NCBI GenBank assembly: GCA_021203745.1
Contig: JAJQAP010000034.1
Coordinates: 4,317 to 39,424, forward strand
Direction of reading: 5' to 3'
Length of the DNA: 35,108 nucleotides
Origin: Coprobacillus sp.
Lineage (GTDB): Bacteria > Bacillota_I > Bacilli_A > RFN20 > CAG-826
Shown here: positions 2,016 to 32,451 of the stretch, piece after piece
How the letters are laid out: the number at the start of each line of letters is the position of its first letter
Position numbering within the stretch: position 1 is the first letter of the stretch
Notes under the pieces: generated by a model
Seen by the model: the letters and a program-made list of their open reading frames with translations, nothing else
What the model was told of the DNA's origin: nothing
The model's database searches: none
Made by a program: the position numbers and the translations under genes

Positions 2016-2018
2016 GTA

Positions 2019-3608: not shown

Positions 3609-3609
3609 T

Positions 3610-7400: not shown

Positions 7401-7618
7401 ATATTCTGATAGGCAAGAGTGGCACTGTCAAACGGGGTAATTGGAGTGTTACGAGAATCCACTCCAAAACCACCGACACACTGACCGACACTCGCATAAA
7501 ACACCCACATTGGTTTTCCTCTCTCCCCCGCAATCGCGGGTAAAAAGGAAGAGAATGTTTTCCCATTTAAATAGTCCTTTATGATAAATGTGTCACCACT
7601 AAATTCGTATTTAACCAT
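4481..7618 (-). CDS. Large glucan phosphorylase, GH94/GH149/GH161 type (probable beta-1,3-glucan phosphorylase)
   Basis: This is a 1045-residue cytoplasmic enzyme without a signal peptide. Family-type motifs are GNFRDINQNRR in the middle and PGWNDAMNGLPG, whose Asp631 corresponds to the catalytic acid of inverting glycan phosphorylases. RGYFARLTGAN near the C-terminus also fits the family. At about 1,040 residues it is longer than classical GH94 cellobiose phosphorylases (about 800) and closer to GH149/GH161 beta-1,3-glucan phosphorylases. It should release glucose 1-phosphate from imported beta-glucan oligosaccharides using phosphate, which saves one ATP per glucose. It sits between the surface lipoprotein gene and a GH16 gene. 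An AGGG site lies 6-7 bases before the ATG. The superfamily is clear; which family and linkage it acts on is inferred from length and operon context. Confidence 0.82.
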   Translation of the reverse strand: MVKYEFSGDTFIIKDYLNGKTFSSFLPAIAGERGKPMWVFYASVGQCVGGFGVDSRNTPITPFDSATLAYQNIPLKGFRTFIKVNGKTYEPFSKPDDQILKIDKTNITIEEKSNLYEISVNYNTISNEPFNSLIRKVTITNPSSKTLTYDILDGLPVFFPYGLDNVAYKEEVSLMQAYCQIHNLDKKAPFVKFKTSTGDNPVVKERVEGNGFYSFYIRDGKKIALDPFINLDLVFGGDSALIHPVNFIEKEYKEFINQTIQEENILPCAFSGLSISLEPGESLTFYSLYGSFSSLEEFNTYIVNNDNLLDIILKDETSKIVNDLLKSVDLHTSNEVFDNYIKQSYLDNGLRGGFPTLIGNTPYYVYGRKHGDMERDYNFFNIPYQFYSSGNGNFRDINQNRRNDLYFAPYLNDYNIKTFFNLIQIDGQNPLTIKPNSFHIKDTFDLSILDKYENRQELKELIKDYSPSSLYTYLKDKDQLELFEMIIDHSNQEVEASFSEGYWIDHWTYNVDLLENYIAIYPDRIKDLLFDDSYKYFYSLVYVNPRSEKYCLTEDKQVRQYGAIDLKAVEREAKDKGFDMNETHWLVDKHGTQVQTTLLSKIFNLILIKFSTLDSKQLGIEMECEKPGWNDAMNGLPGLFSSGLSETVELLRLTRFLSKSLRSLSKKDRKKSIYILLEQYSFYKEVNKNLDLLIKSSLSSFSYWDKVTSARETFRDKVHYFVKGASKKIKINDIILFLSKVDSILTKGIKEAKEIGGGILPSYLIYNVKEYEETGKVSHLGLKTVKVKEFTLETIPPFLEASARMFKLGKDVATLEDYKYIKESDLYDKSLGIYKTCAAIDDAPFEIGRVHAFTKGWLERECDFVHMAYKYLLGLLEAGYYDEFYTELKTNFVCYMDPSVYGRSPIENVSFIVPTCNPDSSRWGRGYFARLTGANSEVLNMSNIIFIGEHPFKLDTKGTLTFSLNPVLPSSFFDGDDKVSYTFLGKIKIIYHNPSRIDTYKGSHLLYKINDKEYKDIISEPSLVKDIRAAKIDKIEVEVIPNESL

Positions 7619-7653
7619 ACTAAACCCTAGAAGTATTTATTTAGTTTTAATCA

Positions 7654-9102
7654 TTATTCTCCGTAAATATATGAGGAGATAATTGGGCACTTTAAGGAAG
7701 GTAAAACACCATCCTCGATATCCCAAATATCGGTATCATAAGTTGTGTAGAGTTCCGCCTTAACGATATCCTCATCGGAGTAAACATCGCAGTTTGTGAT
7801 TTGACCAAGATCGACATCTCCAGATGTTGGTTTATTCTCTCCTTTATGGGTTTGACCAAAACTAGCAGCGTGAGTGGTATAACCTTCTAGTTCGGGTTGA
7901 ATAACATCAAAAGCAGAAGATGTGCAGTTAATAGCAGTTCCCCAGCATTTACCAACGAAAGAGTAGACACCATTGGTAGGCATATTATTGGAATCTGTTG
8001 CTTTCCCTGATCCAGAAGCGGCATCTTTATCCACAGCGCAGAAAATCCATTCAGGAAGTTGCATATTATCTCCACTTGCCGCGTGATCCCATCCATTACC
8101 TGGGGTGCCAATATAATCCGCGCCAAAATCGATATAATAGTCAGGCATGCTGACGCTTGTGTTATAGCAGATAACATTAGAGACAACCGCCCCAGAAGAG
8201 ATAATTCCTACCACTCCCCCGCAGTTACAATCATCATCATAGAAGTGTGTGGCCATCGTGACGGAAGAGTTAGTTACAAGACAATTTTCTAGTGTTCCCA
8301 TGATGTTTCCAGCGACCGCACCAACAATGGTTCTTCCTGTAACATCGAGGTTATCAAAATGAACGTTTCTAACAACACCTGAAGAGCCAATAACTTGGAA
8401 GAGTCCAATATTATCGCCATTAACATGGCAGCCCTCACTAAATCCATATCTATCAGAAGAATATGTTCCGTAGTAGACATCGGAGTTTGATGGATAGACC
8501 TCTCCTTTTGAAGACCACTGGACTTGTTGACCAGGGAGTTCAGAATAGGCTAGATGGGCGTTAGAAACTGTATATCCATTACCCTCTAATGTTCCATGGA
8601 AGTACTCATTTCTTGGATCCGTTTCTTCATAGAAGCGACCAAATGGTTCAAAGTTAGGGATACTAGATAGGTCGATATCATTCCCTAAAGCGTATGTCCC
8701 TGATAGGTTATCATTAATCGCTTGAAACTCGTCTGCATTTCTTATTACTTTGGTGCAGATCATGACGTTGACTCTTTCCACACTTCCATCAGTGTAAGTG
8801 ACTGTCATTGTCTTTTCTCCGGTTCCCTGCTGAGAGAAATAGGAACCGTCAATTGTTAAGATTCCATTTTTATAGGAGTATTGAGATTTATCCGCAAAAT
8901 AACGTGACATACTGATTTCTTCAATCTTTTTATCAGCATTATCTAGCTCCACTCCTACTAGGTAGTCTTGTTCACTACTATCATAGATAAGTAAGTCTTT
9001 TTGGTAGATTTCTTCTCCTTTTTGTAATGAGACACCACCGCATCCAGTCAGTGAACCCACCGCAAGGAGACACGCTACCATACTAAGTCCGATTTTTTTC
9101 AT
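7654..9102 (-). CDS. Surface lipoprotein with beta-helix (GLUG-like) repeats, function unknown
   Basis: This 482-residue protein has the lipoprotein signal MKKIGLSMVACLLAVGSLTGC (lipobox LTGC). An immunoglobulin-like or beta-sandwich segment covers about residues 25-118. The rest looks like a right-handed beta-helix. YALGNDIDLS and FHGTLEGNGYTV are typical of polysaccharide-associated beta-helix and GLUG-repeat proteins, and later turns contain GLFQVIGSSGVVRNV, GAVAGNIMGTLENC and GGVVGIISSGAVVSNV. I see no catalytic signature. Its position between the permeases and the phosphorylase, and its co-transcription, suggest a surface role in capturing or presenting glucan, but this is inference. A good AAAGGGGA ribosome site precedes the ATG. 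It could also be an adhesin or a non-canonical polysaccharide lyase. Confidence 0.8.
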   Translation of the reverse strand: MKKIGLSMVACLLAVGSLTGCGGVSLQKGEEIYQKDLLIYDSSEQDYLVGVELDNADKKIEEISMSRYFADKSQYSYKNGILTIDGSYFSQQGTGEKTMTVTYTDGSVERVNVMICTKVIRNADEFQAINDNLSGTYALGNDIDLSSIPNFEPFGRFYEETDPRNEYFHGTLEGNGYTVSNAHLAYSELPGQQVQWSSKGEVYPSNSDVYYGTYSSDRYGFSEGCHVNGDNIGLFQVIGSSGVVRNVHFDNLDVTGRTIVGAVAGNIMGTLENCLVTNSSVTMATHFYDDDCNCGGVVGIISSGAVVSNVICYNTSVSMPDYYIDFGADYIGTPGNGWDHAASGDNMQLPEWIFCAVDKDAASGSGKATDSNNMPTNGVYSFVGKCWGTAINCTSSAFDVIQPELEGYTTHAASFGQTHKGENKPTSGDVDLGQITNCDVYSDEDIVKAELYTTYDTDIWDIEDGVLPSLKCPIISSYIYGE

Positions 9103-9144
9103 AATTAAATCCCCTTTATTAATAAATTTATTTAAAGATAATAA

Positions 9145-10089
9145 TTAACCTTTTAAACCTCCAACTGAGGTATTTTCCATAATAGTCCTATTAAAGACAA
9201 TAAATAGGATGATAATTGGTATGATGGCGACGATTATTGTGGCAAACAGCAGAGGATAACTGTTTTTCTGCAGCATCTGGTCGGAAAGCGTTTTTAAACC
9301 GACGGCAATCGTTGGTTTCTGTGGTAAGTAAATACTTGGAGTTAAATAATCGTTCCAAAGACCAATTAACTGAATGATTGAAACCGCGATAATTGAACCT
9401 TTTGCCATAGGAATAATAATTCTAAAGAAGATGACAAAGTCATTGGCTCCATCGATTTTTGCCGCCTCTACATAAGTCCAACTTAAATTCTTAAAGAATG
9501 AATATAGAAGCAAGAAGTTAGAACCAAATCCTCCTGAGTAGAGGAATATACATCCTATCACAGTGTTTGTCAGTCCCATCGCTCTCATGAGTTGAATCTG
9601 AGAAGGTAATGCTCCAACGATAGGGACAATGAGCGAGAAGATAACAACCGCCCAAATAACATTTCTTCCTGGGAATTTATACTTTGCCACAACGTAAGCC
9701 GCACAACTTGAGAAAAACACGGTGACAATTGTTCCTACTCCCGCGATAAGTACAGACATCCCAAGCATCTGCCAAATATTAAACTCGCCCGTTGATCTAG
9801 ATGTACGTGTGGTAAAAGCTTCTTTATAGTTTTCCCATGTTAATTGGCTAGGCCAAGACATAAAGTTATCCGCAAACTCAGATGTCGTTTTAAAAGAGTT
9901 CATAAGCATCCAGGCAAATGGGAAGAGGAATGTTATTGCAAAAACAATAAAGATAACAAGGACGATAATAAAGACCGCTCTTTCAAGCCCTTTTCTCTTA
10001 TAGAGAACGTCGTGCTTTCTCGCGTAGCGAGTTTCCTTAGTGCGTTCTCTTCTTCCTTTCCACCAACGGGTTATTGCGTTTTGTGCCAT
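9145..10089 (-). CDS. ABC sugar transporter permease, MalG-like (CUT1)
   Basis: This 314-residue inner-membrane permease has about six membrane segments and a basic cytoplasmic N-terminus. The conserved coupling loop reads EAAKIDGANDFVIFFRIIIP, a full match to the EAA-G-I-P motif through which CUT1 permeases contact the ATPase. NSFKTTSEF in the first periplasmic loop is also typical of MalG-like subunits. It forms the translocation pore with the MalF-like protein whose stop lies two bases upstream. The next gene downstream is the beta-helix lipoprotein. The substrate is probably a beta-glucan oligosaccharide, inferred from the operon. Confidence 0.93.
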   Translation of the reverse strand: MAQNAITRWWKGRRERTKETRYARKHDVLYKRKGLERAVFIIVLVIFIVFAITFLFPFAWMLMNSFKTTSEFADNFMSWPSQLTWENYKEAFTTRTSRSTGEFNIWQMLGMSVLIAGVGTIVTVFFSSCAAYVVAKYKFPGRNVIWAVVIFSLIVPIVGALPSQIQLMRAMGLTNTVIGCIFLYSGGFGSNFLLLYSFFKNLSWTYVEAAKIDGANDFVIFFRIIIPMAKGSIIAVSIIQLIGLWNDYLTPSIYLPQKPTIAVGLKTLSDQMLQKNSYPLLFATIIVAIIPIIILFIVFNRTIMENTSVGGLKG

Positions 10090-10091
10090 AG

Positions 10092-11081
10092 CTAGAACTC
10101 CGCATCCTTAAAGCACTTATTCATCCCCCACCTCACCAGCAAGATGACTGGAGCCCCGATTAATGAGCAGAAGAGACCAAGTGTCGCAGGAGTATTAAGT
10201 CCTGATCCACCACTTTCTTGGTAAATCTCTAGTCCAATAGTCATCGTTCCGTATTGCCCTGAAGTCAGGAAATAAGGCTGTAAATAAACGTTAAACATAC
10301 TCATCATACCGAGAATGAAGAGTGTGGTAATAGTTGACCAAGTTAAAGGAATAATAATCCTTACAAACTCGACAATTCCAGGAGTGCCATCCATCTTGCA
10401 CTGCTCTAAAATATCACGAGGGATTCTCGCCATTCCAGAGGTTATTAAGATAACATCGTATCCAATTCCTGCCCAGACACAGAATATATAGACCATCCAC
10501 TGGGCACTAGAACCAGTAAAGAAGTTAGCGACATTATCCCCAAACAGATAATACCCTGGTCCATTGACGTTAAAGAATAGAGAATAGACAAGAGTTAAAG
10601 CAACAAGAGGAATAACACTAGGTAAATAGAATATCGCCTTAAAGAATCCCGCTGCCATAATCTTTTTAAAGATAAAGTAAGAGAAGATTAAAGCGATTGG
10701 TAGTGTCACAAAACAAGAGACCACGATATAACCTGCGGAGACTGCAAACATCCTCTGAGTGGATGACTCTCCAAAGGAGAGAAACAGCACTTTAAAGTTA
10801 TAGAATAGGTCATCCCATCCAACGAATTGTAATTTCCCTTGGACTGGTTTCTGGAAGGCTAAAAGAATGGAGTTAATGTTCACTCCTACCCACATAAGGA
10901 GAAACTGAGCCACAGGATAAGCAAGCATCACAATGACAAATATTGTGCTCTGCTTAATGACGTGACGACGATGTTTCTGCTTTGGAGTTAAGACTTTTTC
11001 TTCGGGTTCCCCTGTAACTTCTTCGGTAATCGTCGAGTCACTCGTTTCAATTCGTTGTACTTTTAATGCACCTGTTTTCAT
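10092..11081 (-). CDS. ABC sugar transporter permease, MalF-like (CUT1)
   Basis: This 329-residue permease has about six membrane segments after a 45-residue hydrophilic cytoplasmic N-terminus. The ATPase-contact loop is EQCKMDGTPGIVEFVRIIIP. The usual EAA is replaced by EQC, but the following DG, the hydrophobic run and the IP are kept. It pairs with the MalG-like permease (two-base gap) and lies 24 bases after the binding-protein gene. I see no clear Shine-Dalgarno sequence before its ATG; the spacer is A/T-rich, so translation may depend on an unstructured leader. The oligosaccharide substrate is inferred from context. Confidence 0.93.
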   Translation of the reverse strand: MKTGALKVQRIETSDSTITEEVTGEPEEKVLTPKQKHRRHVIKQSTIFVIVMLAYPVAQFLLMWVGVNINSILLAFQKPVQGKLQFVGWDDLFYNFKVLFLSFGESSTQRMFAVSAGYIVVSCFVTLPIALIFSYFIFKKIMAAGFFKAIFYLPSVIPLVALTLVYSLFFNVNGPGYYLFGDNVANFFTGSSAQWMVYIFCVWAGIGYDVILITSGMARIPRDILEQCKMDGTPGIVEFVRIIIPLTWSTITTLFILGMMSMFNVYLQPYFLTSGQYGTMTIGLEIYQESGGSGLNTPATLGLFCSLIGAPVILLVRWGMNKCFKDAEF

Positions 11082-11105
11082 ATTACGTATTTATTTTTTT
11101 AGTTT

Positions 11106-12608
11106 TTATAAGCCTGCACTCATGCACCATCCTTGCCAACCAGCATTGGCATCAGCATACATCTTTGCCCCAACGGCAGCAGGAGCGGCACTTGCTTTAT
11201 CGTTAGCGTTATTAGATAGAGCCAAAGCATAGTAGTAATCGTTATTAACCCAAGGCATCACTTTATTAGAGGTCCACACAGTAATTGGATTTGTGGATGC
11301 TACTGTAAATGATGTAGATTGCGTTAATTTATCGTAGACACTCTTTGTGTAAGTATCGGTTTCTGTAAGTCCAGAGATATCGACATCGGAGTAGTCAAAG
11401 GCAAGGAAAGCACCTTCCGCTTTATCGACAAAGGTATAACAAGCATCATATGTTGCCATAAAGAGTAAGAAGTCTTTTGCCCCTTCCACGTTATAAGCGT
11501 TAGAAGGGATAATCATTGAATCACCATATCCAACAAGGTAATTGAATGGTCCTTCTTCTTTCGCATTTGGGGCAGTAGGAGTGTTCATAAAACCGATGTT
11601 AAATGGAATCTCTCCATCTTCAGCGACAGAGGATATCTCATATTTTGCCCATTGAGCGTATGGGATCATCGCTGCTCTTTGATTGACGAATTCAGATTGA
11701 GCACTCATAAGGTTATAACCTTGAGCTCCACTTGTGGAGTATTCAGGATGCTCAGCGATAAGGTCATACCATAAAGAGTAAGCTTCGATAAATTCTTTAT
11801 AATATGTATCAGGGTTATATAATTCATAACCATTATAGACGTTAGTTAAGGCATCTAAATCATTGGGGTCGTAGTTATTGACATCTTCTGGTCCGTAGTA
11901 GCGGCAGATAGCCTCTACTTTATCGACCCCCGCAAGTTGAGCCCACCACTCAAAGACAATATAGTCCCAGTAATATTGTCTATCAGTGCCTGACCAAGTA
12001 AAAGGTACGAGGACATTTCGATCATCATCGATGATGTTAGCATCGACAATTGTCTTACATAATTCCGTAAGTTCTTCATAGGTGGTTGGTACTTCCCAAC
12101 CATACTTTTCAAACATATCGATGTTATAGACAATACCACCACAACCTTGGGTATAGCAGACTTTGTAGTAATGCTCTTGCCCATCATCACCAGTGGTTCT
12201 TGAATATTCGAGGTTTTGTTCAAGGTTACGTTCTGCAAATGTCTTGCCAGTTCCCTCTACTTCTGTCTCATAGATATCATCGAGTGGTTCGAGCCACCCT
12301 TGAGCGGCATAAGCTTGCCAGTTAATATCATGGGACATATAGATATCATAATCTGACCCATGACTAACAGCGTCTTCAATACGATCGAGGATTGATTCAT
12401 CCGCTTCAGCGACCACTCTCACACCAGTTAATTCACTATACTGTTCAGCTAGTGATTCAATCCAAGCGGTTCCATATCCACCATCATAGACGCAGATATA
12501 AATAGCATCACTATCAGATCTTGAACTACCACATCCCGCAAGGACTGGGGTGGTAAGCGCAAAAACACACATAAGCGATGCTACTGATAAAATCTTGTTA
12601 AATTTCAT
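11106..12608 (-). CDS. Extracellular sugar-binding lipoprotein (family 1 solute-binding protein)
   Basis: This 500-residue binding protein of a CUT1 ABC importer has a signal peptide ending in lipobox LAGC at about residue 25. The mature protein starts with a Ser/Asp-rich spacer. Family features include IYICVYDGGYGTAWIESLAE at the start of the first lobe, and GGIVYNIDMFEKYGWEVPTT followed by the TYEELTEL helix, which is characteristic of maltose- and oligosaccharide-binding proteins. Its length is somewhat above the usual 420-450. It is the first gene of the glucan operon, with an AAAGGAGA ribosome site and its own promoter and operator. The ligand is probably a laminari-oligosaccharide, by context only. 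Confidence 0.92.
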   Translation of the reverse strand: MKFNKILSVASLMCVFALTTPVLAGCGSSRSDSDAIYICVYDGGYGTAWIESLAEQYSELTGVRVVAEADESILDRIEDAVSHGSDYDIYMSHDINWQAYAAQGWLEPLDDIYETEVEGTGKTFAERNLEQNLEYSRTTGDDGQEHYYKVCYTQGCGGIVYNIDMFEKYGWEVPTTYEELTELCKTIVDANIIDDDRNVLVPFTWSGTDRQYYWDYIVFEWWAQLAGVDKVEAICRYYGPEDVNNYDPNDLDALTNVYNGYELYNPDTYYKEFIEAYSLWYDLIAEHPEYSTSGAQGYNLMSAQSEFVNQRAAMIPYAQWAKYEISSVAEDGEIPFNIGFMNTPTAPNAKEEGPFNYLVGYGDSMIIPSNAYNVEGAKDFLLFMATYDACYTFVDKAEGAFLAFDYSDVDISGLTETDTYTKSVYDKLTQSTSFTVASTNPITVWTSNKVMPWVNNDYYYALALSNNANDKASAAPAAVGAKMYADANAGWQGWCMSAGL

Positions 12609-12643
12609 ATGATTAATCTCCTTTACTCAATAAAATTACTATT

Positions 12644-12661
12644 TAGGAAATCGTTTTCTTA
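12644..12661. promoter_or_regulatory. LacI-type operator copy 2, at the start of the glucan operon
   Basis: TAGGAAATCGTTTTCTTA carries the same arms and AAANCGNTTT core as the copies at 245 and 12808. It covers the predicted transcription start of the minus-strand operon, directly after the -10 box, which is the classic position for repression. The LacI-family protein encoded at 14311-15318 is the likely reader. Confidence 0.7.
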
Positions 12662-12666
12662 ATAGT

Positions 12667-12695
12667 AGTATATTCTCTTAAAAAATAGACTTCAA
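12667..12695 (-). promoter_or_regulatory. Promoter of the glucan utilisation operon
   Basis: On the minus strand, TTGAAG (12695-12690) and TATACT (12672-12667) are separated by 17 bases, a good sigma-A match. The start would fall near 12660, inside operator copy 2, giving a leader of about 50 bases before the binding-protein ATG at 12608. Confidence 0.7.
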
Positions 12696-12801
12696 ATAAT
12701 TTTTGGGATTTTGTGGAAAATTATCAAGATTAGTAAAATAAATATTATTTTAGTAGACATTTAAATAAACGTATGGAAAAAGAAGAAAATAACAATTAAA
12801 A

Positions 12802-12825
12802 TAGAATTAAGAAATCGGTTTCCTA
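12802..12825 (+). promoter_or_regulatory. -10 box and LacI-type operator copy 3, upstream of the divergent GH16 gene
   Basis: A -10-like TAGAAT (12802-12807) is followed directly by the operator TAAGAAATCGGTTTCCTA (12808-12825). The operator is almost the reverse complement of copy 2, so the two divergent promoters carry mirror-image sites about 147 bases apart (centre to centre 164), a spacing that might allow looping. I do not see a convincing -35. The ribosome site GGAGGA is 6 bases before the ATG at 12841. Confidence 0.62.
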
Positions 12826-12840
12826 GATGGAGGAATTGAT

Positions 12841-14319
12841 ATGAAAAAAGTAAATAAGAATATATGGTCACTCGCTTTAAGCGCCTTACTTTTATGTGGT
12901 TGTAGTGGTTCTTCTACCACTCAAAATAGTGTTATTGAATTTGGAGATACTGATTACTACAGCACTATTGAAGATAGGGTTTCCTTTAACTATAACGATG
13001 AGAGAAATATCGATGAACATTTTGAAGGTGGGATGGATGATTCTAAATGGTATGCCCTTGAAGGAGCGTGGCACAATACCGATAGTACCGCTCCCCATAA
13101 CGGAATGAAACATCGTAATCTCTACTATACAGAAACCCCAAGTGGAAGCACATATCTTGCAATAAAAGGTAAAGGTTATTACTATACGGGTGATGACTTT
13201 GAATACAATAAACCAGAAGGTGGATGTATTATCTCAAAAGATCATTTAGGTCCAGGAAGATATGAAATAGAAATGGCCGCTCTTCCACGCGAGGGAGCGG
13301 TATCAGCAATGTGGACATATTGCACCACGACAGGTAACGAAGCAACAAGTCAAAATGAAATAGATATAGAACTAGGTGGAACCACAAACGGCACACAATT
13401 TGAAAACCTCTGGTCCACCACTTGGACAAAACAATCTGTCAAAGATACAGATACCATTGATGTTACAGATTATCTCTACACTAATGATGGACAAATCCAT
13501 AAATACACTTTTGACTGGTATACAAATTACCAAGGAACTGGCGAAAAGAGAGTGGACTGGTTTATCGATGGAATCTTTATGGATTCCATAACTGGTAATG
13601 CTGTCCCTGAATACGACACTCCACTTTGGATTGGTGTGTGGTTCCCTCCTCTTTGGGCTGGTAACCCATCATTTGTGGAAGATTATATGGTCGTTAAGAG
13701 TGTTACTTACACCGCTTTTGAAAATAGACAATGGTACGATGAGTGTAAGGCTGGTGCGGGTTATAACAAAGTTGATCCCTCTAGTTTAGATTTCCAAACA
13801 ATCCCTTGGGAAACAGTTAGAGATGTCGAAAAACTTGGTAATTCCCATCTTGATAATCTCGAACAGGCTCCAAGAGATGGTTCCTATTATGGCTGGGCCG
13901 AAGAAAGCGCCTCAAAAGGCGAGGTCTCCCTTGTCGATGGAGAGTCCGATAAAGCAATTAAACTAACGGCCTCGGATAACACATCAGAGTCCATCCATGG
14001 AGAATATCTAAAACAAACAATCTCAAATGCTTTTGATGGATATAAATATCATTTAACAGGATCCGCAAAACTTGAAGACAGTGCAAGTTCTGGAAATATC
14101 GAGATAAGATTCTTAAATAAATCAGGCTCTTCAATATCTAATTCAAAAATTGATATACCAATTGAATCATATGAAGAATATCAAAAAATTGACATACAAT
14201 TAAGTGTGCCAACTGGTGCTAAGAGTCTAACGATAGGATTAACCGCTGAAGAGGGGTCAGTCATCTACGATGAGATGAGTCTTATATTTGAGGCTGGTGT
14301 TCCCAATATCTCAATTTAA
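12841..14319 (+). CDS. GH16-family lipoprotein with C-terminal carbohydrate-binding-like domain
   Basis: This 492-residue lipoprotein has the lipobox LCGC (about Cys21). A GH16 domain covers about residues 45-300, and its catalytic motif is NEIDIELGG with Glu173, Asp175 and Glu177. The ExDxE spacing lacks the beta-bulge, as in lichenases and xyloglucan-active GH16 enzymes and unlike the two other GH16 proteins here. A beta-sandwich domain of CBM4/9 appearance occupies about 335-492. It is transcribed divergently from the glucan operon and shares its operator type, so it probably attacks a different bond or region of the same polysaccharide, for example mixed-linkage glucan. Its last 9 bases overlap the 3' end of the convergent regulator gene. 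Membership of GH16 is strong; specificity is inferred. Confidence 0.85.
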   Translation: MKKVNKNIWSLALSALLLCGCSGSSTTQNSVIEFGDTDYYSTIEDRVSFNYNDERNIDEHFEGGMDDSKWYALEGAWHNTDSTAPHNGMKHRNLYYTETPSGSTYLAIKGKGYYYTGDDFEYNKPEGGCIISKDHLGPGRYEIEMAALPREGAVSAMWTYCTTTGNEATSQNEIDIELGGTTNGTQFENLWSTTWTKQSVKDTDTIDVTDYLYTNDGQIHKYTFDWYTNYQGTGEKRVDWFIDGIFMDSITGNAVPEYDTPLWIGVWFPPLWAGNPSFVEDYMVVKSVTYTAFENRQWYDECKAGAGYNKVDPSSLDFQTIPWETVRDVEKLGNSHLDNLEQAPRDGSYYGWAEESASKGEVSLVDGESDKAIKLTASDNTSESIHGEYLKQTISNAFDGYKYHLTGSAKLEDSASSGNIEIRFLNKSGSSISNSKIDIPIESYEEYQKIDIQLSVPTGAKSLTIGLTAEEGSVIYDEMSLIFEAGVPNISI

Positions 14320-15318
14320 TTTTATATTTTTCACTGTTTCTCCTGTAATAAGAGTTCCCTCAAGTTCTGTTACTTGGGGGACTTTTTGTCCGTTCATTAA
14401 AGCGATAAGATGATCCGCAAGGACTTTACCAATCCTTGAAGCGTCTTGTTTATAAGTCGTTAATGTTTTTGGGAGAAGATATCCAACATCGGTTCCATCA
14501 AATCCGGTTATGGATATATCTTCTGGGACTTTTTTTCCAAGGGCGTTTGCCGCTTTTATGGCCGCACAAGCGGTGTAATCGTCGGGGAACATGATACAAG
14601 TAACCTCAGGATGATTTAAGATAATCTCTTGGGTTATTTGATAGGCTTGATTAGTCCCGTAGTAGGGCATTGTTTTAAAAAGATACTTATTAAAAGACAA
14701 ACCATGTTTAGCTAATGAATCTTGATAACCTTTTAATCTATAATTTGCAACAAGGGTGTCATCTCCAAGTACTAGATATATATTCTTATGTCCCATATCG
14801 ATGACATAGTCCGTTAACTCTTCCATGGCTTTCACGCTGTTTGAGCGGACAGAGCAAGTATCCTCTCCATAATAGTCAAAGACAATTGTGGGGATATCGC
14901 TCTTTAGAAGGTCAAAAGTCATTTCATCGATGATAAAACCAAAGATTAAGACTCCACCGATATTTCGAGAACGGCAGTTCGCAAGATAAGACTCTTCTCT
15001 TCCTTTTATTGATTTATCCACAAATAAAAGATCATAACCATTTTTAATAATCTCATTTTGGAAGGCAACAAGGATTTTAGAAAAGAGAGGATGACCAAAA
15101 GGGGACTCTTCATTAGATAAAAATCCTAGTATTCCAATATTTCTCGATAATTTCGTGGAGAGTTGAGAAGCCACGCTATTAGGGTAAAAGTTATACTCTT
15201 CAATCGTCCTTAAAACCTTCTCACGGGTTTCCGCAGGAATTGAGGGGTAATTGTTGATTACCTTACTGACAGTGGAAGTCGATACACCACAAATTTTAGC
15301 AATGTCTTTAATGGTCAT
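14311..15318 (-). CDS. LacI-family transcriptional regulator, probable repressor of the glucan locus
   Basis: This 335-residue regulator has an N-terminal helix-turn-helix reading MTIKDIAKICGVSTSTVSKV, with the hinge region FYPNSVASQLS, followed by a periplasmic-binding-fold sensor domain (about residues 60-330). FGFIIDEMTFDLL and SITGFDGTDVGYLLPKTLTT are typical LacI/GalR sequence. It is the last gene of the second minus operon, 4 bases after the GH30 stop. Its natural targets are the three TARGAAADCGKTTTCYTA palindromes at the glucan promoters. The effector is probably a glucan-derived sugar. No such palindrome lies before its own operon, so autoregulation is not evident. Confidence 0.92.
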   Translation of the reverse strand: MTIKDIAKICGVSTSTVSKVINNYPSIPAETREKVLRTIEEYNFYPNSVASQLSTKLSRNIGILGFLSNEESPFGHPLFSKILVAFQNEIIKNGYDLLFVDKSIKGREESYLANCRSRNIGGVLIFGFIIDEMTFDLLKSDIPTIVFDYYGEDTCSVRSNSVKAMEELTDYVIDMGHKNIYLVLGDDTLVANYRLKGYQDSLAKHGLSFNKYLFKTMPYYGTNQAYQITQEIILNHPEVTCIMFPDDYTACAAIKAANALGKKVPEDISITGFDGTDVGYLLPKTLTTYKQDASRIGKVLADHLIALMNGQKVPQVTELEGTLITGETVKNIKLN

Positions 15319-15322
15319 AATC

Positions 15323-16624
15323 CTAAATCTCTAACGTCACTGTGTTCATTGAATGACTTCTAAGTTTTATAAGATAAAACTTATTAGATACCTTAACCTT
15401 TAGGAAACGAGAATTTCCTAAATTAAGGATTAAAATTATTATACACTTTTTCTTGCTATTGTAAAACGTGGCGATATTTAACTTTTTAAGGGAAAAAACA
15501 TCTAAAACCACTCTCTGGCAGTCACTTCCAATAAAGGAAGATATATGTTTAATCGCGTAATATGAGGGATTAATAACAATGTTGTTATTATCTTTATCAT
15601 ACATCAGTGGTGCTTCACAGAAATTACCGACATGATTAGGCCCACCATCGGTATCTAAAAGTATGTTCCAATCAAGGAAAATCGATGTTCCTGAATTTAG
15701 ATCTGTTATATAGGAGTTAAAATACCTTAGGGCGTCTTCATACTTCTTTTTTGGGGTTTTCGATAGTCCTTCTATACAACCTTCTGAAAACACAAGGGTC
15801 TTTTTAGGATATTTATCATGAACCTTTTTGACGTTTTCAAATTGAATATCGTCATACCAATGGAAGGTAACGTAGTTAAAGAGGTTATAGGTATTATATT
15901 TGGTAAAAGATTTGTCAACCCAAGTATAGAGATCATCTCTATTATGATCATATATCGCTAGGTCGACATGTTGACCATTTTGTTTCAATACGTTATATAA
16001 AATTTGCGCAAAATGGGCTTCTTCATCCACTTTATAAAGGCATGATTCCCAAGGGACTTTTGCTTCGGGTTCATTATTAATAGAAAGAAAGGAAAAATCG
16101 ATTCCTGACTCTTTCATACTTTTTAGGTATTTAGAGATGTATTGAGCGTGATTTTGATAGTATTGGGGAAGGAGTCTTCCACCCACTTTATTTTGGTTAG
16201 ATTTATAGATTGGGAGTGGGGACCAAATAGATCCCATCAATGTTAAAGGATGATATTCTTTTTCTACCCTTTTAATAAAACCAATTAAATCGTCTTCGTA
16301 TGGGTGGATATTAAAGTCTGAAAGGTCCACTTTTTTTGCATACGTATAATCATTTTTATTAAAATCACACGTTCCTATTGGGATTCGTGCGTATTTATAA
16401 TTTAGACCAGTTTCTGCGTAGATTAAATCGAGAAATGTTTTCTTTTGAGCTTCATCTAAAAGGTTGTAGTTATATAAAACGGCATTAGTAATAGCCCCTC
16501 CAAAACCAAGGATCTTTTGATCGAGTTTAGACACATCAATATTAAGAGCCTTTTTGCTCTTAGATGTTTTCTTTACTTTGCTTACAGCAAAGTATTTATT
16601 TTTCGTGCTGTATAGGTGAGTCAT
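15323..16624 (-). CDS. GH30 beta-glycosidase, intracellular (beta-1,6-glucanase/glucosylceramidase-like)
   Basis: The track starts at 16627 on TTG; the next codon is ATG at 16624, used here (433 residues). There is no signal peptide. GFGGAITNAVLYNY near the N-terminus is the family hallmark. The acid/base is in INNEPE (about Glu185) and the nucleophile in VFSEGC (about Glu281). SIWSPLPIYK and FHWYDD also fit the family. A short C-terminal beta domain follows the barrel. The enzyme probably removes beta-1,6 or beta-1,3 glucosyl residues from imported oligosaccharides, complementing the phosphorylase at branch points; this is inference. It overlaps the end of the YesL-like gene by 29 bases, and no strong ribosome site is visible, so translation may be coupled. 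Confidence 0.85.
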   Translation of the reverse strand: MTHLYSTKNKYFAVSKVKKTSKSKKALNIDVSKLDQKILGFGGAITNAVLYNYNLLDEAQKKTFLDLIYAETGLNYKYARIPIGTCDFNKNDYTYAKKVDLSDFNIHPYEDDLIGFIKRVEKEYHPLTLMGSIWSPLPIYKSNQNKVGGRLLPQYYQNHAQYISKYLKSMKESGIDFSFLSINNEPEAKVPWESCLYKVDEEAHFAQILYNVLKQNGQHVDLAIYDHNRDDLYTWVDKSFTKYNTYNLFNYVTFHWYDDIQFENVKKVHDKYPKKTLVFSEGCIEGLSKTPKKKYEDALRYFNSYITDLNSGTSIFLDWNILLDTDGGPNHVGNFCEAPLMYDKDNNNIVINPSYYAIKHISSFIGSDCQRVVLDVFSLKKLNIATFYNSKKKCIIILILNLGNSRFLKVKVSNKFYLIKLRSHSMNTVTLEI

Positions 16625-17450
16625 CAATTTCTTTTGCCAGTCCTTTTCGATAAACTTCTGGATATGATTTAGAGTTTATTGTTCGATCAAAGATATACAT
16701 GGAGTAAAGCATAAATACAGCGGTAGAAAACCCAAAATAAAACAGGGCGCACACTAAAACCACTATCGCTTGCCCAATAAAGTAAGGAATAAAGCTAAAA
16801 CAGAAAAATGGCACGAGCATGATTGCGGTGACCCCAATCACTCTTCCAAAGTCACCAATAATAAACCTTACCGAATTAGTAATAAGTTGGGTAAAGGTGG
16901 CGTTATAGAAAATCGATTGAGTTAAAGCTAGGGCGGTTACCATAAAAACGATAATAAAGATAACATACATTAAACCGATAATGATGACTTTCCAAACTGT
17001 TGACATGCTGGTGTTATAATCGAGCATTGCTCCAAAGATATTCATTAAAAAGTAAACGATTCCAAAGGTTAAAAAAGAGAGCGAGCATCCTTTCGCGTAT
17101 TTTCTTACTCCTTCAAAAAAGTCTTTTGTGACTGTCGAACCTTCATTATAAAAAGTCTTTTTAAAGAAGTTTAAACCCCCACCTATTCCAAGACCAAAGA
17201 CCACAATGAGAGGGATAGCCACTCCATAGACAATAAGGTAGATCCAAATCGAGGGATCAACATCGCTTAAAAAAGTATAGTAAGAAAAGATAAGCCAAAA
17301 GACTAAGGGAATTAAAAAGATAAACATATAAATAGAAACGATGACATAGTCCCAAAAACGCCACCTAAGGGTGTCTTTTAACTGTCCTCTTCGATTTATT
17401 GGAAGCGGTACATCAGTCGCGGCAAATGGTGCTCTTTTTTTTCTTGGCAT
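16596..17450 (-). CDS. YesL/DUF624-family membrane protein
   Basis: The track start at 17462 is a TTG. The ATG at 17450 has GGAG 7 bases upstream and lies one base after the previous stop, so I use it (284 residues). It has about six membrane segments with a basic N-terminus. FYNEGSTVTKDFFEGVRKYAKG between the second and third segments is the conserved loop of the DUF624/YesL family. YesL-like genes are commonly found in sugar utilisation operons next to ABC importers, but their biochemical role is not established. It sits between an unknown single-span protein and the GH30, in line with a role in carbohydrate uptake or envelope function. Confidence 0.75.
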   Translation of the reverse strand: MPRKKRAPFAATDVPLPINRRGQLKDTLRWRFWDYVIVSIYMFIFLIPLVFWLIFSYYTFLSDVDPSIWIYLIVYGVAIPLIVVFGLGIGGGLNFFKKTFYNEGSTVTKDFFEGVRKYAKGCSLSFLTFGIVYFLMNIFGAMLDYNTSMSTVWKVIIIGLMYVIFIIVFMVTALALTQSIFYNATFTQLITNSVRFIIGDFGRVIGVTAIMLVPFFCFSFIPYFIGQAIVVLVCALFYFGFSTAVFMLYSMYIFDRTINSKSYPEVYRKGLAKEIDDSPIQHEK

Positions 17451-27713: not shown

Positions 27714-29084
27714 ATGCCAGAGCTTCCGGAAGTTGAAACAATTAAAAACATCCTTAATGATATCCTTCCTGGGAAGGTTATTTCTTCTGTCGAGATAAAC
27801 CGAGAGAAATCAGTCCTAGGAGATCCTAAAACATTTATGGATTCATTAAAAGGTAAGAAGATATTAGAGATAGGAAGAAAGGGAAAATATCTTATATTCT
27901 ATCTAGCGGATGATTATGTCATTATTTCTCATTTAAGAATGGAAGGTAAGTACTATTTAGAGGATGAAAAAGAGGATGATACTAAATATGCTCGTATTGT
28001 CTATCATTTCACGGATGGCTCTAAATTATGTTTTGATGATTCCCGTTCATTTGGAATTACAAAACTCACTAAAAAAGACCAATATCTTGATGAAAAGGAA
28101 TTAAAAACACTAGGATTAGAACCCTTTTCAATTGAAAATGTCGATTACTTAATCGAGAAAACAAAGAATATAAGCACGCCAATAAAGTCAACATTACTTG
28201 ACCAATCAATAATCGCAGGACTCGGTAATATATACGCTGATGAAGTTCTCTTTTTATCGGGAATTAATCCAATGGAAAAAGCAAAAAAACTTACAAGAGA
28301 AGACTGGGAAAAAGTCCTTACTAATTCAATAGACGTTTTAAATAAAGCAATTAAAGAAGGTGGATCTACAATTAGATCATATCACCCAGGAAAAGGGATA
28401 GATGGTAACTTCCAAACCCAGTTAAATGTCTATGGTAAAAAGGGAGAACCTTGTCCTAAATGCGGACACAAATTGTATTATAAAAAAATAGGTGGAAGAG
28501 GCTCGACATTCTGCCCGAGATGCCAAGCAAAAAAGAACCCACCAATTTACTATGGATTAACCGGTCCGCTCTCCGCGGGTAAATCGACAGTTTTAGATAT
28601 TTGTAAGAAGCTAGGGGTAGCAACACTATCCGCCGATGATATTGTCCATGAACTATATAAAAACGGAAAAGTGATTAAAAAGATTAACCAAATAACCTCG
28701 CAAAATTTTGAAGGTGAAGTTAATCGAGAACTTTTACGAGATTACTTAATTGAAAATCCTCGTAAAGTGAAGCAAGTCGATAATTATATTCATCCTCTTG
28801 TTAAAGAGAGAATCATTAGTGAAATGACTCGTAATAAAAAGGAGAAAATGGTCGTTGAAGTTCCACTACTCTTTGAAGCGGGTTTTGATAATCTCTTTGA
28901 TTACAATATTGCTGTGTCTATAAACGAAGATTCTAGAAAGTCACATATAAAAACTAGTGATTTATTAAAACTTAATAAAAAAGATAATGATTTTTACACT
29001 TCTCAAGCGGATATCATTATCGAAAATAATTCAGATTTAAAGAGTCTTGAAAAAGAAGTTAGCGATAAGCTCCTTCAAGATTAA
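27714..29084 (+). CDS. mutM-coaE: Fusion of formamidopyrimidine-DNA glycosylase and dephospho-CoA kinase
   Basis: This single 456-residue ORF joins two usually separate genes. Residues 1-272 are MutM: the catalytic PELPEVE start (Pro2, Glu3), GRKGKYLIF with the catalytic Lys, HLRMEGKYYL, and the C-terminal zinc finger with Cys247, Cys250, Cys267 and Cys270. It removes oxidised purines such as 8-oxoguanine. Residues 276-456 are CoaE, which makes CoA: P-loop GPLSAGKST (284-292), LSADDIVHELY and VVEVPLLFEAG. In the lid region the usual Arg-rich R...R..Q stretch is shortened and altered (SINEDSRKSHIKTSDLL), so activity of the kinase half is open. In Bacillus, polA, mutM and coaE are adjacent separate genes, so fusion by loss of the intervening stop is likely. 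The 3' end overlaps convergent dnaI by 26 bases. Confidence 0.93.
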   Translation: MPELPEVETIKNILNDILPGKVISSVEINREKSVLGDPKTFMDSLKGKKILEIGRKGKYLIFYLADDYVIISHLRMEGKYYLEDEKEDDTKYARIVYHFTDGSKLCFDDSRSFGITKLTKKDQYLDEKELKTLGLEPFSIENVDYLIEKTKNISTPIKSTLLDQSIIAGLGNIYADEVLFLSGINPMEKAKKLTREDWEKVLTNSIDVLNKAIKEGGSTIRSYHPGKGIDGNFQTQLNVYGKKGEPCPKCGHKLYYKKIGGRGSTFCPRCQAKKNPPIYYGLTGPLSAGKSTVLDICKKLGVATLSADDIVHELYKNGKVIKKINQITSQNFEGEVNRELLRDYLIENPRKVKQVDNYIHPLVKERIISEMTRNKKEKMVVEVPLLFEAGFDNLFDYNIAVSINEDSRKSHIKTSDLLKLNKKDNDFYTSQADIIIENNSDLKSLEKEVSDKLLQD

Positions 29085-29967
29085 ATTCTATTTCCCCACC
29101 ACAGGCACCTCTTATAGTTTCTACTAACCTGGATGCTTTTGCATTACCTCCAGCGCTACTACCACCATAAATGCCTCTAATTTCATCGAGGTGATAATGA
29201 CTGACGAGGATGGTAATTAAATCATGAGAATATCTAAACTCTAAAATTGGACTAATAATCGCATCTCTAATATAGTCACTCGTATATTCATCACCAAAAT
29301 TATCGATAATTAAAACATTACATAACTGATAACGTTTAATTAAATCTTGTTGATCTTGTTTATAAGCATCAGAGATTTCTTTAATTCTGATTGGAGCGTT
29401 TATAAAGCAGATTGGTCCTTGACCAGACCTAGCTAGTTCATTAGCGAGAACCGCGGCAAAATAAGTCTTCCCTGTTTTATCTAGTCCATAAATATAAGCG
29501 GATTTTTTCTCACCCACCACTCTTTTAAAGGCTTTATTTCTATAACGAGTTCTATCAAAATCTTTATCGGTTATCGTGGCGTGGCTCCACTGCTCAGGAA
29601 AATCATGGATTTGGAAGTTAGATCTAATTGAACTCTCTTCAAGTGATAACTCACAGGGAGAGATAGAACGTTCAATAATGTTATGAGAGAAATTTAGACC
29701 AATTTGTTGTTGAGGGAATCTCTTTTCACATTTATCAAGTCCAGGACAAGAAGCGCAGTATTCTTTATCCTTTAAATAATCGTAAACTTTATCGTAATAC
29801 TTAAAGATGATGTCGTCGGATATAGTAACGAGTAATGGGTCTTCGTTTTTATGCTCAGCGACATATTTTTTACACTCTTCCATAAACTGTTCGTCAGAGG
29901 TCGAAAAGATTGGGTCCTGTTCGAGCTCTTCACTTACTCTCTTAATGTCAAAATCATTTTCCGCCAT
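29059..29967 (-). CDS. dnaI: Primosomal helicase loader DnaI
   Basis: This 302-residue AAA+ protein loads the replicative helicase. The N-terminal helicase-binding domain includes the zinc ligand cluster CASCPGLDKC (Cys71, Cys74, Cys80). The AAA+ domain has Walker A YGLDKTGKT (about 161-168), Walker B VLIIDNFGDE (about 218-227), sensor 1 TILVSHYH and a C-terminal Arg-rich SRLVETIRGACGG. The length is normal for Bacillota DnaI (about 310). Its start overlaps the dnaB stop by 14 bases, the usual dnaB-dnaI pairing. The 3' end overlaps the convergent mutM-coaE gene by 26 bases, so opposing transcripts may interfere. Confidence 0.93.
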   Translation of the reverse strand: MAENDFDIKRVSEELEQDPIFSTSDEQFMEECKKYVAEHKNEDPLLVTISDDIIFKYYDKVYDYLKDKEYCASCPGLDKCEKRFPQQQIGLNFSHNIIERSISPCELSLEESSIRSNFQIHDFPEQWSHATITDKDFDRTRYRNKAFKRVVGEKKSAYIYGLDKTGKTYFAAVLANELARSGQGPICFINAPIRIKEISDAYKQDQQDLIKRYQLCNVLIIDNFGDEYTSDYIRDAIISPILEFRYSHDLITILVSHYHLDEIRGIYGGSSAGGNAKASRLVETIRGACGGEIEFNLEGAYR

Positions 29968-31252
29968 TTCGCACCATATCGATTAATCGATTCCATTCTT
30001 CATCAGAGTTATCGATTTCTTCCTCTTCTTTGTTTATTTTATCATTTTTTGCTTCAGTTTCACTACTACCTGCTTTTTTTGCACTAGTTTTACTTCTCTT
30101 TTTTCTTTCTCCATTAAGATAATCAAGAGCATCAGCGGCATTTGTTACTCCCTCTCTTACAAGGGTAGCGGCAACCTTTTGCATGTAGTTAGATGGTAAG
30201 GTATTGTTTTGCGTTTCAAGTGTAAAACTAACAAGAGCGTTTATTACGGGGTTAGTTAGATGATATTTACTACTTAATGTATTAAGGATATTTAAGTCTG
30301 CATCTGCGGGTTCGATTCCCTTTTGAAGATCTTGAAGATATTTAACTGGGGCTTCACTTTCCATCTGATTGATCTTTTTTGCAAGTTCAGATTCAGAATT
30401 GAGTTTTTTGGGATTAAGGTTATCACGTAATATTTGACTTTCCACTCGATACTGACTGTTATAGGATAGTTGTCTCATGATTAATTTCGTGTCGATTCTT
30501 TCTCCAACAGGTTTATCCGCTTTATAGGTAATATTTACCGCAACGGCCATCTCTAGTTCACTCGCTCCATACAACTCGGCAATACGACTTATTTCATTGA
30601 GTTCGTCTTTTGAAAACGAGTCTTTTGTTAAAGATCCGACTGGCACTTGTAATGAACAGGCTTCAATAAAATCTGCGGTAGAGAAGGTCGAATTAATGTG
30701 AGCGTTTTCTCTTCCTTTAATCTTGTCGGTATTTGTCGCACTGCTAAATGGTTTTGAATCGTAGTTAGGTCTATATACTTCTTTAAAGGTCGCCGATATA
30801 TCTTCTCCTTCTATTTCTTCTTCACTGGTCACATAAATCGATTTAATTAACTCCGCTTCTTGGTCCCCTAAGTTTCTTTTTAGCATCCCGTAATACAAGG
30901 TATTATTAATAAACCTATCAGGAGGATAAGGTGGATATAGTTCATAATGGTATAAGTTATACTCTTCTTTTTCTTCTAGGTATGTTTTAACTAGACCCAT
31001 CGCTTCTAGTTGTTCTCTTGCACTGTTAAAGGTATCGAGATTCATCTGAATCCTATTTAGAAACTTTTCATGACTAATAATAGGACCAACCTCTTCTAGT
31101 TTACTCTCCGTTAAAAAAGAGAAGTATAGGGCTAGAGCGGCGTAGCCAATTATAGGTTCATATAAATTAATGAGGGTATCTCGATCATAATCGGCGAATA
31201 ACCCTTTAAAGGAAACAGAAAGATAATCTTTACCTAACGCAATACTTTTCAT
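29954..31252 (-). CDS. dnaB: Replication initiation and membrane attachment protein DnaB (DnaB/DnaD family)
   Basis: This 432-residue protein is the Bacillota DnaB, not the helicase. It starts with DYLSVSFKGLFADYDRDTLINLYEPIIGYAALALYFSFL, a winged-helix DnaB/DnaD N-terminus. A middle helical DnaD-like domain follows, and a second at about 330-390 includes NPVINALVSFTLE. A Lys/Glu-rich disordered tail ends it. It helps load the helicase at oriC and at restarting forks together with DnaD and DnaI, and dnaI overlaps its 3' end. Its promoter lies next to a DnaA-box cluster, which suggests control by DnaA. The initiator transcript appears to begin only a few bases before the ATG. Confidence 0.9.
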   Translation of the reverse strand: MKSIALGKDYLSVSFKGLFADYDRDTLINLYEPIIGYAALALYFSFLTESKLEEVGPIISHEKFLNRIQMNLDTFNSAREQLEAMGLVKTYLEEKEEYNLYHYELYPPYPPDRFINNTLYYGMLKRNLGDQEAELIKSIYVTSEEEIEGEDISATFKEVYRPNYDSKPFSSATNTDKIKGRENAHINSTFSTADFIEACSLQVPVGSLTKDSFSKDELNEISRIAELYGASELEMAVAVNITYKADKPVGERIDTKLIMRQLSYNSQYRVESQILRDNLNPKKLNSESELAKKINQMESEAPVKYLQDLQKGIEPADADLNILNTLSSKYHLTNPVINALVSFTLETQNNTLPSNYMQKVAATLVREGVTNAADALDYLNGERKKRSKTSAKKAGSSETEAKNDKINKEEEEIDNSDEEWNRLIDMVRNGGK

Positions 31253-31261
31253 AACTTCTTT

Positions 31262-31290
31262 ATTATCTAAAAAGTTTTGTGTGTAATCAA
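31262..31290 (-). promoter_or_regulatory. Promoter of dnaB-dnaI
   Basis: On the minus strand, TTGATT (31290-31285), a 17-base spacer and GATAAT (31267-31262) match sigma-A sites. The start would be near 31255, only about 3 bases before the dnaB ATG at 31252, so the mRNA may be almost leaderless. A DnaA-box-like TGTGTGTAA (31278-31286) overlaps the -35. Confidence 0.55.
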
Positions 31291-31455
31291 CTAATAATAT
31301 TTACATATTATTTGGTGGATAATTTATCCACCTAAAAACTAGTCAGTGTATAAATAAATGAGTGAATAACTCGTATATTTATCCACATTTAAAATGTGAG
31401 TAAATCTAGTCTTGGAAATTATTATTAATAATTTACAAAATAGGGTTTATACACT
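31278..31455. promoter_or_regulatory. DnaA-box cluster between dnaB and pfkA
   Basis: Against the consensus TTATNCACA, TTATCCACA at 31379-31387 (plus) is a perfect match. GGTGGATAATTTATCCACC (31314-31332) is a perfect palindrome holding two head-to-head boxes that each miss only the last base. Further one-mismatch boxes lie at 31278, 31345, 31361 and 31395 (all minus) and 31447 (plus). That makes eight boxes in about 180 A/T-rich bases. Possible roles are control of dnaB-dnaI and pfkA by DnaA, titration of DnaA, or an initiation region. No dnaA gene is in the window. Confidence 0.6.
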
Positions 31456-31460
31456 AAACT
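31432..31460 (+). promoter_or_regulatory. Promoter of pfkA
   Basis: TTTACA (31432-31437), a 17-base spacer and TAAACT (31455-31460) lie upstream of pfkA, with a leader of about 20 bases and the ribosome site GAGG at 31474. A one-mismatch DnaA box (31447-31455) lies in the spacer. Confidence 0.5.
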
Positions 31461-31485: not shown

Positions 31486-32451
31486 ATGGCAAAAAAAATC
31501 GCAATACTCACAAGTGGGGGTGATGCCCCTGGAATGAACCCCACAATTAGAGCTCTTATTAGAGCGGGCTTAGATGCAGGAGACGAAATGTATGTCGTCT
31601 ATGATGGCTTCAAGGGGTTATACGAAGGAAATATAGAACAAGTTGATAAGAAATTCTCTTCTGGGATCTTAAATCGAGGTGGCACAGTGATTAGAAGTGC
31701 TAGATTCCCAGAGTTTGCTGATGTTGAAGTGGCGAAAGTTGCGGCAAAACAGCTTAAGGATAGAGGAATAGATTATCTAGTAGGTATAGGAGGGGATGGA
31801 ACATACCATGGTCTAGCATCTCTTCATAAATTAGGTGTTAAGGTTATTGGACTACCTGGCACAATTGATAATGATATAGCAACAAGCGATGAAACAATCG
31901 GTTTTAATACATGTCTAGAAACAATTGTTGATGCTCTTGAAAAGATTAAAGATACTTCCTCCTCTCATACAAGATGTGCGGTTGTCGAAGTGATGGGTAG
32001 GCTTTGTGATGATCTAGCGATAAATGCTTCTATTGCGGTAGGAGCAGAGGTAACAGTTACCCACTCCCACAATCTCAGTGAAGAAGAGATTATTAAGCGT
32101 GTGCAAGCGGTAAAAGATGAACGAATCTCTCATTGCCTTGTAGTTGTCTCTGAACATCTTTTAGATGTCAATGAACTAGCTAGTCATATAGAAGCGGCTA
32201 CAGGATATGAAACTAAAGCGGAGGTTTTAGGTAGACTCCAACGTGGTGGGGTGCCTTGCGCAAAAGATAGAATCCTTGGCTCCACTCTTGCAATGCATGC
32301 AATTGAGCTTATTAACGAAGATAAAACAGGAAGACTCGTTGGTATCCATAATGGAAAGCCAGCGGATTACGATATCTTAGAAACTGTCGATATTAAAAGA
32401 CAAGTGGCAAATACAGACTTATATAAAGTTGTCGATACATTAGGGAAGTAA
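31486..32451 (+). CDS. pfkA: ATP-dependent 6-phosphofructokinase
   Basis: This 321-residue glycolytic enzyme phosphorylates fructose 6-phosphate at position 1. The ATP site is SGGDAPGMNPTIRAL, and GIGGDGTYHG has the Gly-Thr typical of ATP-dependent rather than pyrophosphate-dependent forms. The catalytic segment is PGTIDNDI with the general-base Asp. GFNTCLETI replaces the more usual GFDTA. VEVMGRLCDDLA and LGRLQRGGVPCAKDR bind the sugar phosphate. The length is typical of bacterial PfkA. Its stop and the next start share a base (TAATG), so the ROK kinase is coupled. Pairing with glucokinase fits growth on glucose released from glucans. Confidence 0.97.
   Translation: MAKKIAILTSGGDAPGMNPTIRALIRAGLDAGDEMYVVYDGFKGLYEGNIEQVDKKFSSGILNRGGTVIRSARFPEFADVEVAKVAAKQLKDRGIDYLVGIGGDGTYHGLASLHKLGVKVIGLPGTIDNDIATSDETIGFNTCLETIVDALEKIKDTSSSHTRCAVVEVMGRLCDDLAINASIAVGAEVTVTHSHNLSEEEIIKRVQAVKDERISHCLVVVSEHLLDVNELASHIEAATGYETKAEVLGRLQRGGVPCAKDRILGSTLAMHAIELINEDKTGRLVGIHNGKPADYDILETVDIKRQVANTDLYKVVDTLGK

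What the first reader, a model, noticed from the sequence alone, without database searches (positions are those of the whole stretch)
31278..31455. Dense DnaA-box cluster at the dnaB/pfkA divergent promoters
One perfect box, a perfect 19-bp palindrome of two boxes and five more one-mismatch boxes occur in about 180 A/T-rich bases. The sites overlap the predicted promoters of dnaB-dnaI and pfkA. It could be DnaA feedback on helicase loading, a link of glycolysis to replication, a DnaA titration site or part of an origin.
Basis: partly seen in the sequence, partly recalled or inferred. Interest (0 to 1): 0.6.

Follow-up and report, generated by a model that had tools for sequence, protein, structure and literature searches.

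The report
DnaA-controlled promoter of helicase-loader genes
In a large family of uncultured gut bacteria, the DNA just before the helicase-loader genes dnaB-dnaI carries a conserved, precisely placed set of binding sites for DnaA, the protein that starts chromosome replication, which suggests that DnaA itself controls how much helicase loader the cell makes.

Summary
All eight sites are present (TTATNCACA, at most one mismatch) against 0.56 expected; 0 of 5000 shuffles reach eight. Only three match TTATCCACA; these, plus a degenerate fourth, are the conserved core.

Upstream of dnaB, most same-family relatives carry two DnaA-box pairs. One clade of the DnaB tree has at least three boxes in 41 of 43 members. 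Box 2 lies 33-34 bp upstream of the predicted dnaB -35 element in 26 of 28 testable genomes, 12 genera, although the promoter-to-ATG distance varies from 36 to 58. Where pfkA is no longer dnaB's neighbour, boxes stay with dnaB (12 of 12) and pfkA has none nearby apart from one weak distant match. Facing dyads of this type sit almost only upstream of dnaB (26 places) or dnaA (15); one lies elsewhere.

It is not the origin: box clusters and the GC-skew switch are at dnaA. The glycolysis link is not supported.

Best reading: DnaA binds here and regulates dnaB-dnaI. Geometry mildly favours activation; the sign is unproven. DnaA-controlled promoters are known; I found no report of this target in Bacilli (open-access papers only).

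The parts
29954..31252 (-). dnaB (Firmicutes-type replication initiation and helicase-loading protein, 432 aa), proposed target gene
   Evidence: Pfam DnaB_2 PF07261, 29.1 bits over cut-off 22
29059..29967 (-). dnaI-like AAA+ helicase loader, overlapping the end of dnaB, presumably in one operon
   Evidence: only a sub-threshold AAA_25 match; a homologue follows dnaB in relatives; the name dnaI rests on this position and is inferred
31262..31290 (-). predicted dnaB core promoter: -35 TTGATT (31285-31290), 17 bp, -10 GATAAT (31262-31267)
   Evidence: similar promoter (TTGAAA, 17-18 bp, NATAAT) at this place in relatives; in this window alone the match is no better than shuffles
31314..31322 (-). 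DnaA box 1 (TTATCCACC), half of pair 1, centre about -63 from the predicted dnaB start of transcription
31324..31332 (+). DnaA box 2 (TTATCCACC), half of pair 1, 33 bp from the -35 element, centre about -73
31379..31387 (+). DnaA box 3, perfect TTATCCACA, half of pair 2
31395..31403 (-). degenerate DnaA box 4 (TTACTCACA), half of pair 2; strong (TTWTCCACA) in most relatives outside this genus
   Evidence: alignment
31432..31460 (+). predicted pfkA core promoter: TTTACA, 17 bp, TAAACT (neighbouring gene, not the inferred target)
   Evidence: no better than shuffles; TTTACA recurs in same-genus relatives
31486..32451 (+). pfkA (6-phosphofructokinase), divergent neighbour
   Evidence: Pfam PFK 301 bits

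Best explanation
The cluster is a DnaA-responsive control region of the dnaB-dnaI operon. DnaA binds the inverted pair of boxes at about -63 and -73 from the dnaB start of transcription, and a second facing pair some 55-80 bp further upstream. It adjusts transcription of the helicase-loading genes according to the amount or nucleotide state of DnaA. Shown here: the sites, their conservation in relatives, a near-invariant distance from pair 1 to the predicted dnaB promoter, co-inheritance with dnaB and not pfkA, and sharing of the dyad with the dnaA upstream region. Inferred: that DnaA binds, that the two pairs cooperate, that dnaI is co-transcribed, and the sign. Sites upstream of -35 on about one face of the helix mildly favour activation (about 55%) over repression.
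For: 1) Family-wide alignment: box1(-)/box2(+) about 1-2 nt apart, then box3(+) and box4(-) facing with 7-8 nt between; one well supported clade (SH-aLRT 99) has at least 3 boxes in 41 of 43 rows. 2) Box 2 is 33 bp (24) or 34 bp (2) from the -35 edge in 26 of 28 genomes, 12 genera, while -35 to ATG varies from 36 to 58. 3) Where dnaB and pfkA are separated (G006, G059, G077, G089, G099, G107, G113, G038, G039, G090, G014, G035) 2-5 boxes remain at dnaB and the 400 bp before pfkA hold none in 11 and one weak distant match in the twelfth. 4) TTWTCCACA-N6-9-TGTGGAWAA occurs at 42 places in 112 genomes: 26 at dnaB, 15 upstream of dnaA, 1 elsewhere. 5) The same box words form the clusters around dnaA. 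6) Sister family f3, with dnaB and pfkA also divergent in 6 of 14 loci, has no boxes; 39 dnaB loci from other families of the order and class have essentially none, so A/T-rich DNA alone does not produce them.
Against: No binding or expression data exist for these uncultured organisms. Box 4 is degenerate and pair 1 is CACC-ended in the window, so affinity may be lower than in relatives. Several genera of the family (g6, g10, g12, g20, g21, g34, most of g25, g27 and g29) have no clear cluster, so the control is not essential for dnaB. The dnaB promoter is predicted, and in the window alone no better than shuffles. Some genera show a loosely repeated distance (about 28-32 bp) between box 3 and a predicted pfkA promoter, so an extra effect on pfkA is not excluded there.
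Confidence: 0.83

Rival explanations
1. DnaA titration, or ATP/ADP-switch, site (like E. coli datA or DARS, or the B. subtilis DnaA-box clusters) that merely happens to sit beside dnaB.
For: Dense strong boxes outside oriC; B. subtilis clusters of this kind restrain initiation (PMC5295017). The locus lies far from oriC: dnaB is about 0.8 of the way from dnaA to the terminus in the complete genome G103, although G103 itself lacks the boxes.
Against: A titration site needs no fixed distance to one promoter and need not stay with one gene through rearrangements. The number of boxes is small.
Confidence: 0.1
2. The boxes control pfkA (alone or jointly), linking glycolysis to replication.
For: Divergent promoters share the spacer; in the window pair 2 lies about -68/-84 from the predicted pfkA start; some genera repeat a 28-32 bp distance from box 3 to a predicted -35.
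Against: Where pfkA is separated from dnaB it has no strong boxes, in 12 of 12 cases, while dnaB keeps them; distance to predicted pfkA promoters varies widely.
Confidence: 0.04
3. The region is oriC or a second origin.
For: DnaA boxes plus A/T-rich DNA and, in many relatives, an A/T palindrome between the pairs.
Against: Box clusters upstream of dnaA and in the spacer after dnaA in this genome and relatives. GC skew changes sign near dnaA in G027 and G103, and dnaB lies inside one replication arm. No whole-genome skew could be drawn for the window's own fragmented genome.
Confidence: 0.02
4. Another regulator with a similar recognition sequence binds here, not DnaA.
For: No binding data; the dyad with 7-9 bp spacing also resembles a site for a dimeric repressor.
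Against: The same 9-mers make up the dnaA/oriC clusters of the same genomes, and facing dyads occur almost only at dnaA and dnaB.
Confidence: 0.04

Closest known systems
DnaA-activated sda promoter of Bacillus subtilis
   Same: cluster of DnaA boxes upstream of a gene tied to replication status; DnaA acts as a transcription factor, ATP-DnaA preferred (PMC4447404)
   Different: target is the helicase-loader operon and not a sporulation inhibitor; dnaB is not among the 20 strongest B. subtilis DnaA regions in vitro (PMC4447404, Table 1)
DnaA autoregulation of dnaA-dnaN (E. coli, B. subtilis and others)
   Same: the same kind of facing DnaA-box dyad is upstream of dnaA in 15 of the genomes searched; feedback on a replication-initiation gene (PMC8203912)
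   Different: second, unlinked locus; spacing mostly 8 nt at dnaB and 9 nt at dnaA; placed a fixed distance from a different promoter
Caulobacter crescentus DnaA regulon, dnaB (replicative helicase)
   Same: predicted DnaA boxes upstream of a gene acting at helicase loading (PMC8203912, citing Hottes 2005)
   Different: Caulobacter dnaB is the helicase itself; here dnaB is the unrelated Firmicutes loading factor, in another phylum, with a conserved two-pair layout
B. subtilis DnaA-box clusters and E. coli datA/DARS
   Same: DnaA-box cluster outside oriC
   Different: here tied to one promoter at fixed distance and inherited with one gene; no evidence of a role in initiation timing

Membership tests
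DnaA-regulated promoter | DnaA boxes near the promoter beyond chance | tested here: met
   0 of 5000 shuffles; conserved in relatives
DnaA-regulated promoter | boxes at constrained position relative to the promoter | tested here: met
   33-34 bp from -35 in 26 of 28 genomes (promoters predicted, genomes related)
DnaA-regulated promoter | DnaA binds and changes transcription | not testable with these tools
   needs footprinting and reporters
chromosomal oriC | GC-skew switch from negative to positive at the site | tested here: not met
   the switch is near dnaA in G027 and G103; dnaB sits in one arm; own genome too fragmented to test
chromosomal oriC | box clusters flanking dnaA (bipartite Bacilli oriC) | tested here: not met
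   these clusters are at dnaA (contig C31 in this genome), not here
DnaA titration or datA/DARS-type locus | effect on initiation timing or on DnaA nucleotide state | not testable with these tools
   experiment needed; fixed promoter distance is not expected of such a site

The most novel reading that the evidence does not exclude
In this bacterial family DnaA controls the initiator (dnaA-dnaN) and the helicase loader (dnaB-dnaI) through the same kind of facing-box dyad, so the two steps of initiation are supplied in step. The control arose within the family and uses a two-pair nucleoprotein complex, in many genera around an A/T palindrome that might open as a cruciform.
Probability: 0.35. Interest if true: 0.65.

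Novelty: new member of a known kind. Interest (0 to 1): 0.52.

Why it matters
In Bacillus subtilis, proteins that regulate initiation mostly act on DnaA or on DnaD recruitment. Transcriptional control of the loader genes by DnaA was not found in the passages searched of three reviews (PMC13220808, PMC5295017, PMC8203912). A conserved, gene-linked DnaA site at dnaB-dnaI would couple initiator supply and helicase-loader supply, would give small gut Bacilli a simple replication feedback, and is testable with purified DnaA and a reporter.

Tried and rejected
Origin hypothesis: rejected by GC skew and the dnaA clusters of relatives. pfkA as target: rejected by separated genes and variable distances. 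A/T-rich chance: rejected by shuffles, other spacers of the window, and outgroup spacers. RNA element: no Rfam family at gathering score. A genome-contig search with the window DnaB protein found nothing; a DNA-pattern scan instead named relatives as uncultured gut Bacilli. The tree is the quick version; the careful one did not finish. G004 (no boxes by its dnaB) is best read as a contig break, since its pfkA contig begins with boxes 2-4.

Full report
Observation. With TTATNCACA and one mismatch, dinucleotide-preserving shuffles of the spacer give 0.56 sites on average and never eight in 5000. With TTATCCACA the spacer has three sites against 0.10 expected. The other four spacers over 60 bp in the window have zero or one. 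Chance in A/T-rich DNA is therefore not the explanation.

Genomic setting. The window lies in G000 contig C79, a 960-kb draft in 92 contigs, 81% complete. dnaB carries the Pfam DnaB_2 domain, the divergent gene is PFK, and the dnaI name is inferred from position.

Conservation. Among 116 same-family genomes searched, 108 have dnaB. Aligning 30 upstream regions shows box1(-)/box2(+) back to back, then after roughly 45-70 bp box3(+)/box4(-) facing each other. In a tree of DnaB one clade of 43 rows with SH-aLRT support 99 holds 41 with at least three boxes (quick tree). Genera outside it have the boxes more patchily, and several have none. Thirty-nine dnaB loci of other families in the order and class have essentially no boxes, including the sister family f3, where 6 of 14 loci show pfkA divergent about 210 bp away. 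The element is thus a trait of part of this family.

Which gene. In 12 genomes pfkA is not next to dnaB (moved elsewhere or separated by inserted DNA). All 12 keep 2-5 boxes upstream of dnaB. The 400 bp before pfkA hold no box in 11 and one weak distant match in the other. These separations fall in five genera (g4, g7, g8, g9, g15), and in g7, g8 and g9 other members keep the old arrangement, so several separations look independent.

Promoter geometry. A predicted dnaB promoter (TTGAAA-like, 17-18 bp, NATAAT) recurs across genera. Box 2 begins 33 bp beyond the -35 edge in 24 and 34 bp in 2 of 28 genomes with a scorable pair, across 12 genera, while the distance from -35 to ATG ranges from 36 to 58. 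Genomes are related and promoters are predicted, so the count is not a probability, but the lack of length change between -35 and box 2, in contrast to both neighbouring intervals, is direct. With the usual spacing to the start of transcription, boxes 1 and 2 are centred near -63 and -73, about one helical turn apart. From general knowledge of class I activators such as CRP, this is a common place for activators. No such regularity is seen for predicted pfkA promoters.

Same dyad at dnaA. TTWTCCACA-N6-9-TGTGGAWAA occurs at 42 places in 112 genomes: 26 upstream of dnaB, 15 upstream of dnaA, one elsewhere. The reversed control pattern gave a hit in only one genome. This ties the dnaB site to the DnaA system without assuming a consensus from E. 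coli. The window's own genus does not match this strict pattern because box 4 is degenerate.

Not an origin. Upstream of dnaA, and usually in the spacer after it, the genomes read have clusters of the same boxes. In G027 and in the one-contig genome G103 the GC skew turns from negative to positive near dnaA, and dnaB lies in one arm nearer to the terminus. The window's own skew curve follows gene strand and has its minimum near 12-13 kb, not at 31.3 kb.

Mechanism. Most likely DnaA binds the pairs cooperatively and adjusts dnaB-dnaI transcription. Shown: sites, conservation, distance, linkage. Inferred: binding, cooperation, co-transcription of dnaI, sign. The position favours activation slightly, while DnaA's usual repression of its own gene (PMC8203912) keeps repression nearly as likely. 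I put activation at about 55%.

Known relatives. DnaA as activator of sda and repressor of other genes in B. subtilis is established, and dnaB is not among the 20 strongest B. subtilis regions in vitro (PMC4447404). In Caulobacter the helicase gene dnaB is in the DnaA regulon (PMC8203912). So the kind is known and the target in Bacilli appears new, within the limits of an open-access literature search.

Noticed in passing
between the box pairs in relatives, e.g. L026, L020, L023 upstream of dnaB; absent in the window: A perfect A/T-rich palindrome (arms 7-10, loop 0-4, e.g. GATTTATAC-ATA-GTATAAATC) lies midway between the two pairs in 31 of 43 genomes against 3.3 after shuffling; arms change together. 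Function unknown.
   Followed up: partly
31250-31267: The predicted dnaB -10 ends 7-9 nt before the start codon in all four members of the window's genus, so dnaB mRNA may be leaderless there; many other genera have longer leaders.
   Followed up: partly
27714-29084 +: One open frame encodes MutM (Fpg glycosylase) fused to CoaE (dephospho-CoA kinase).
   Followed up: no
G103 and G027: dnaB-pfkA lies far along a replication arm: about 0.8 of the way from dnaA to the terminus in complete G103 and some 75 kb from the skew reversal in G027.
   Followed up: partly
285-16627: Looks like a beta-glucan use locus by reading of the translations only: laminarinase-like lipoproteins, sugar ABC transporter, large phosphorylase-like enzyme, LacI-type regulator.
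   Followed up: no
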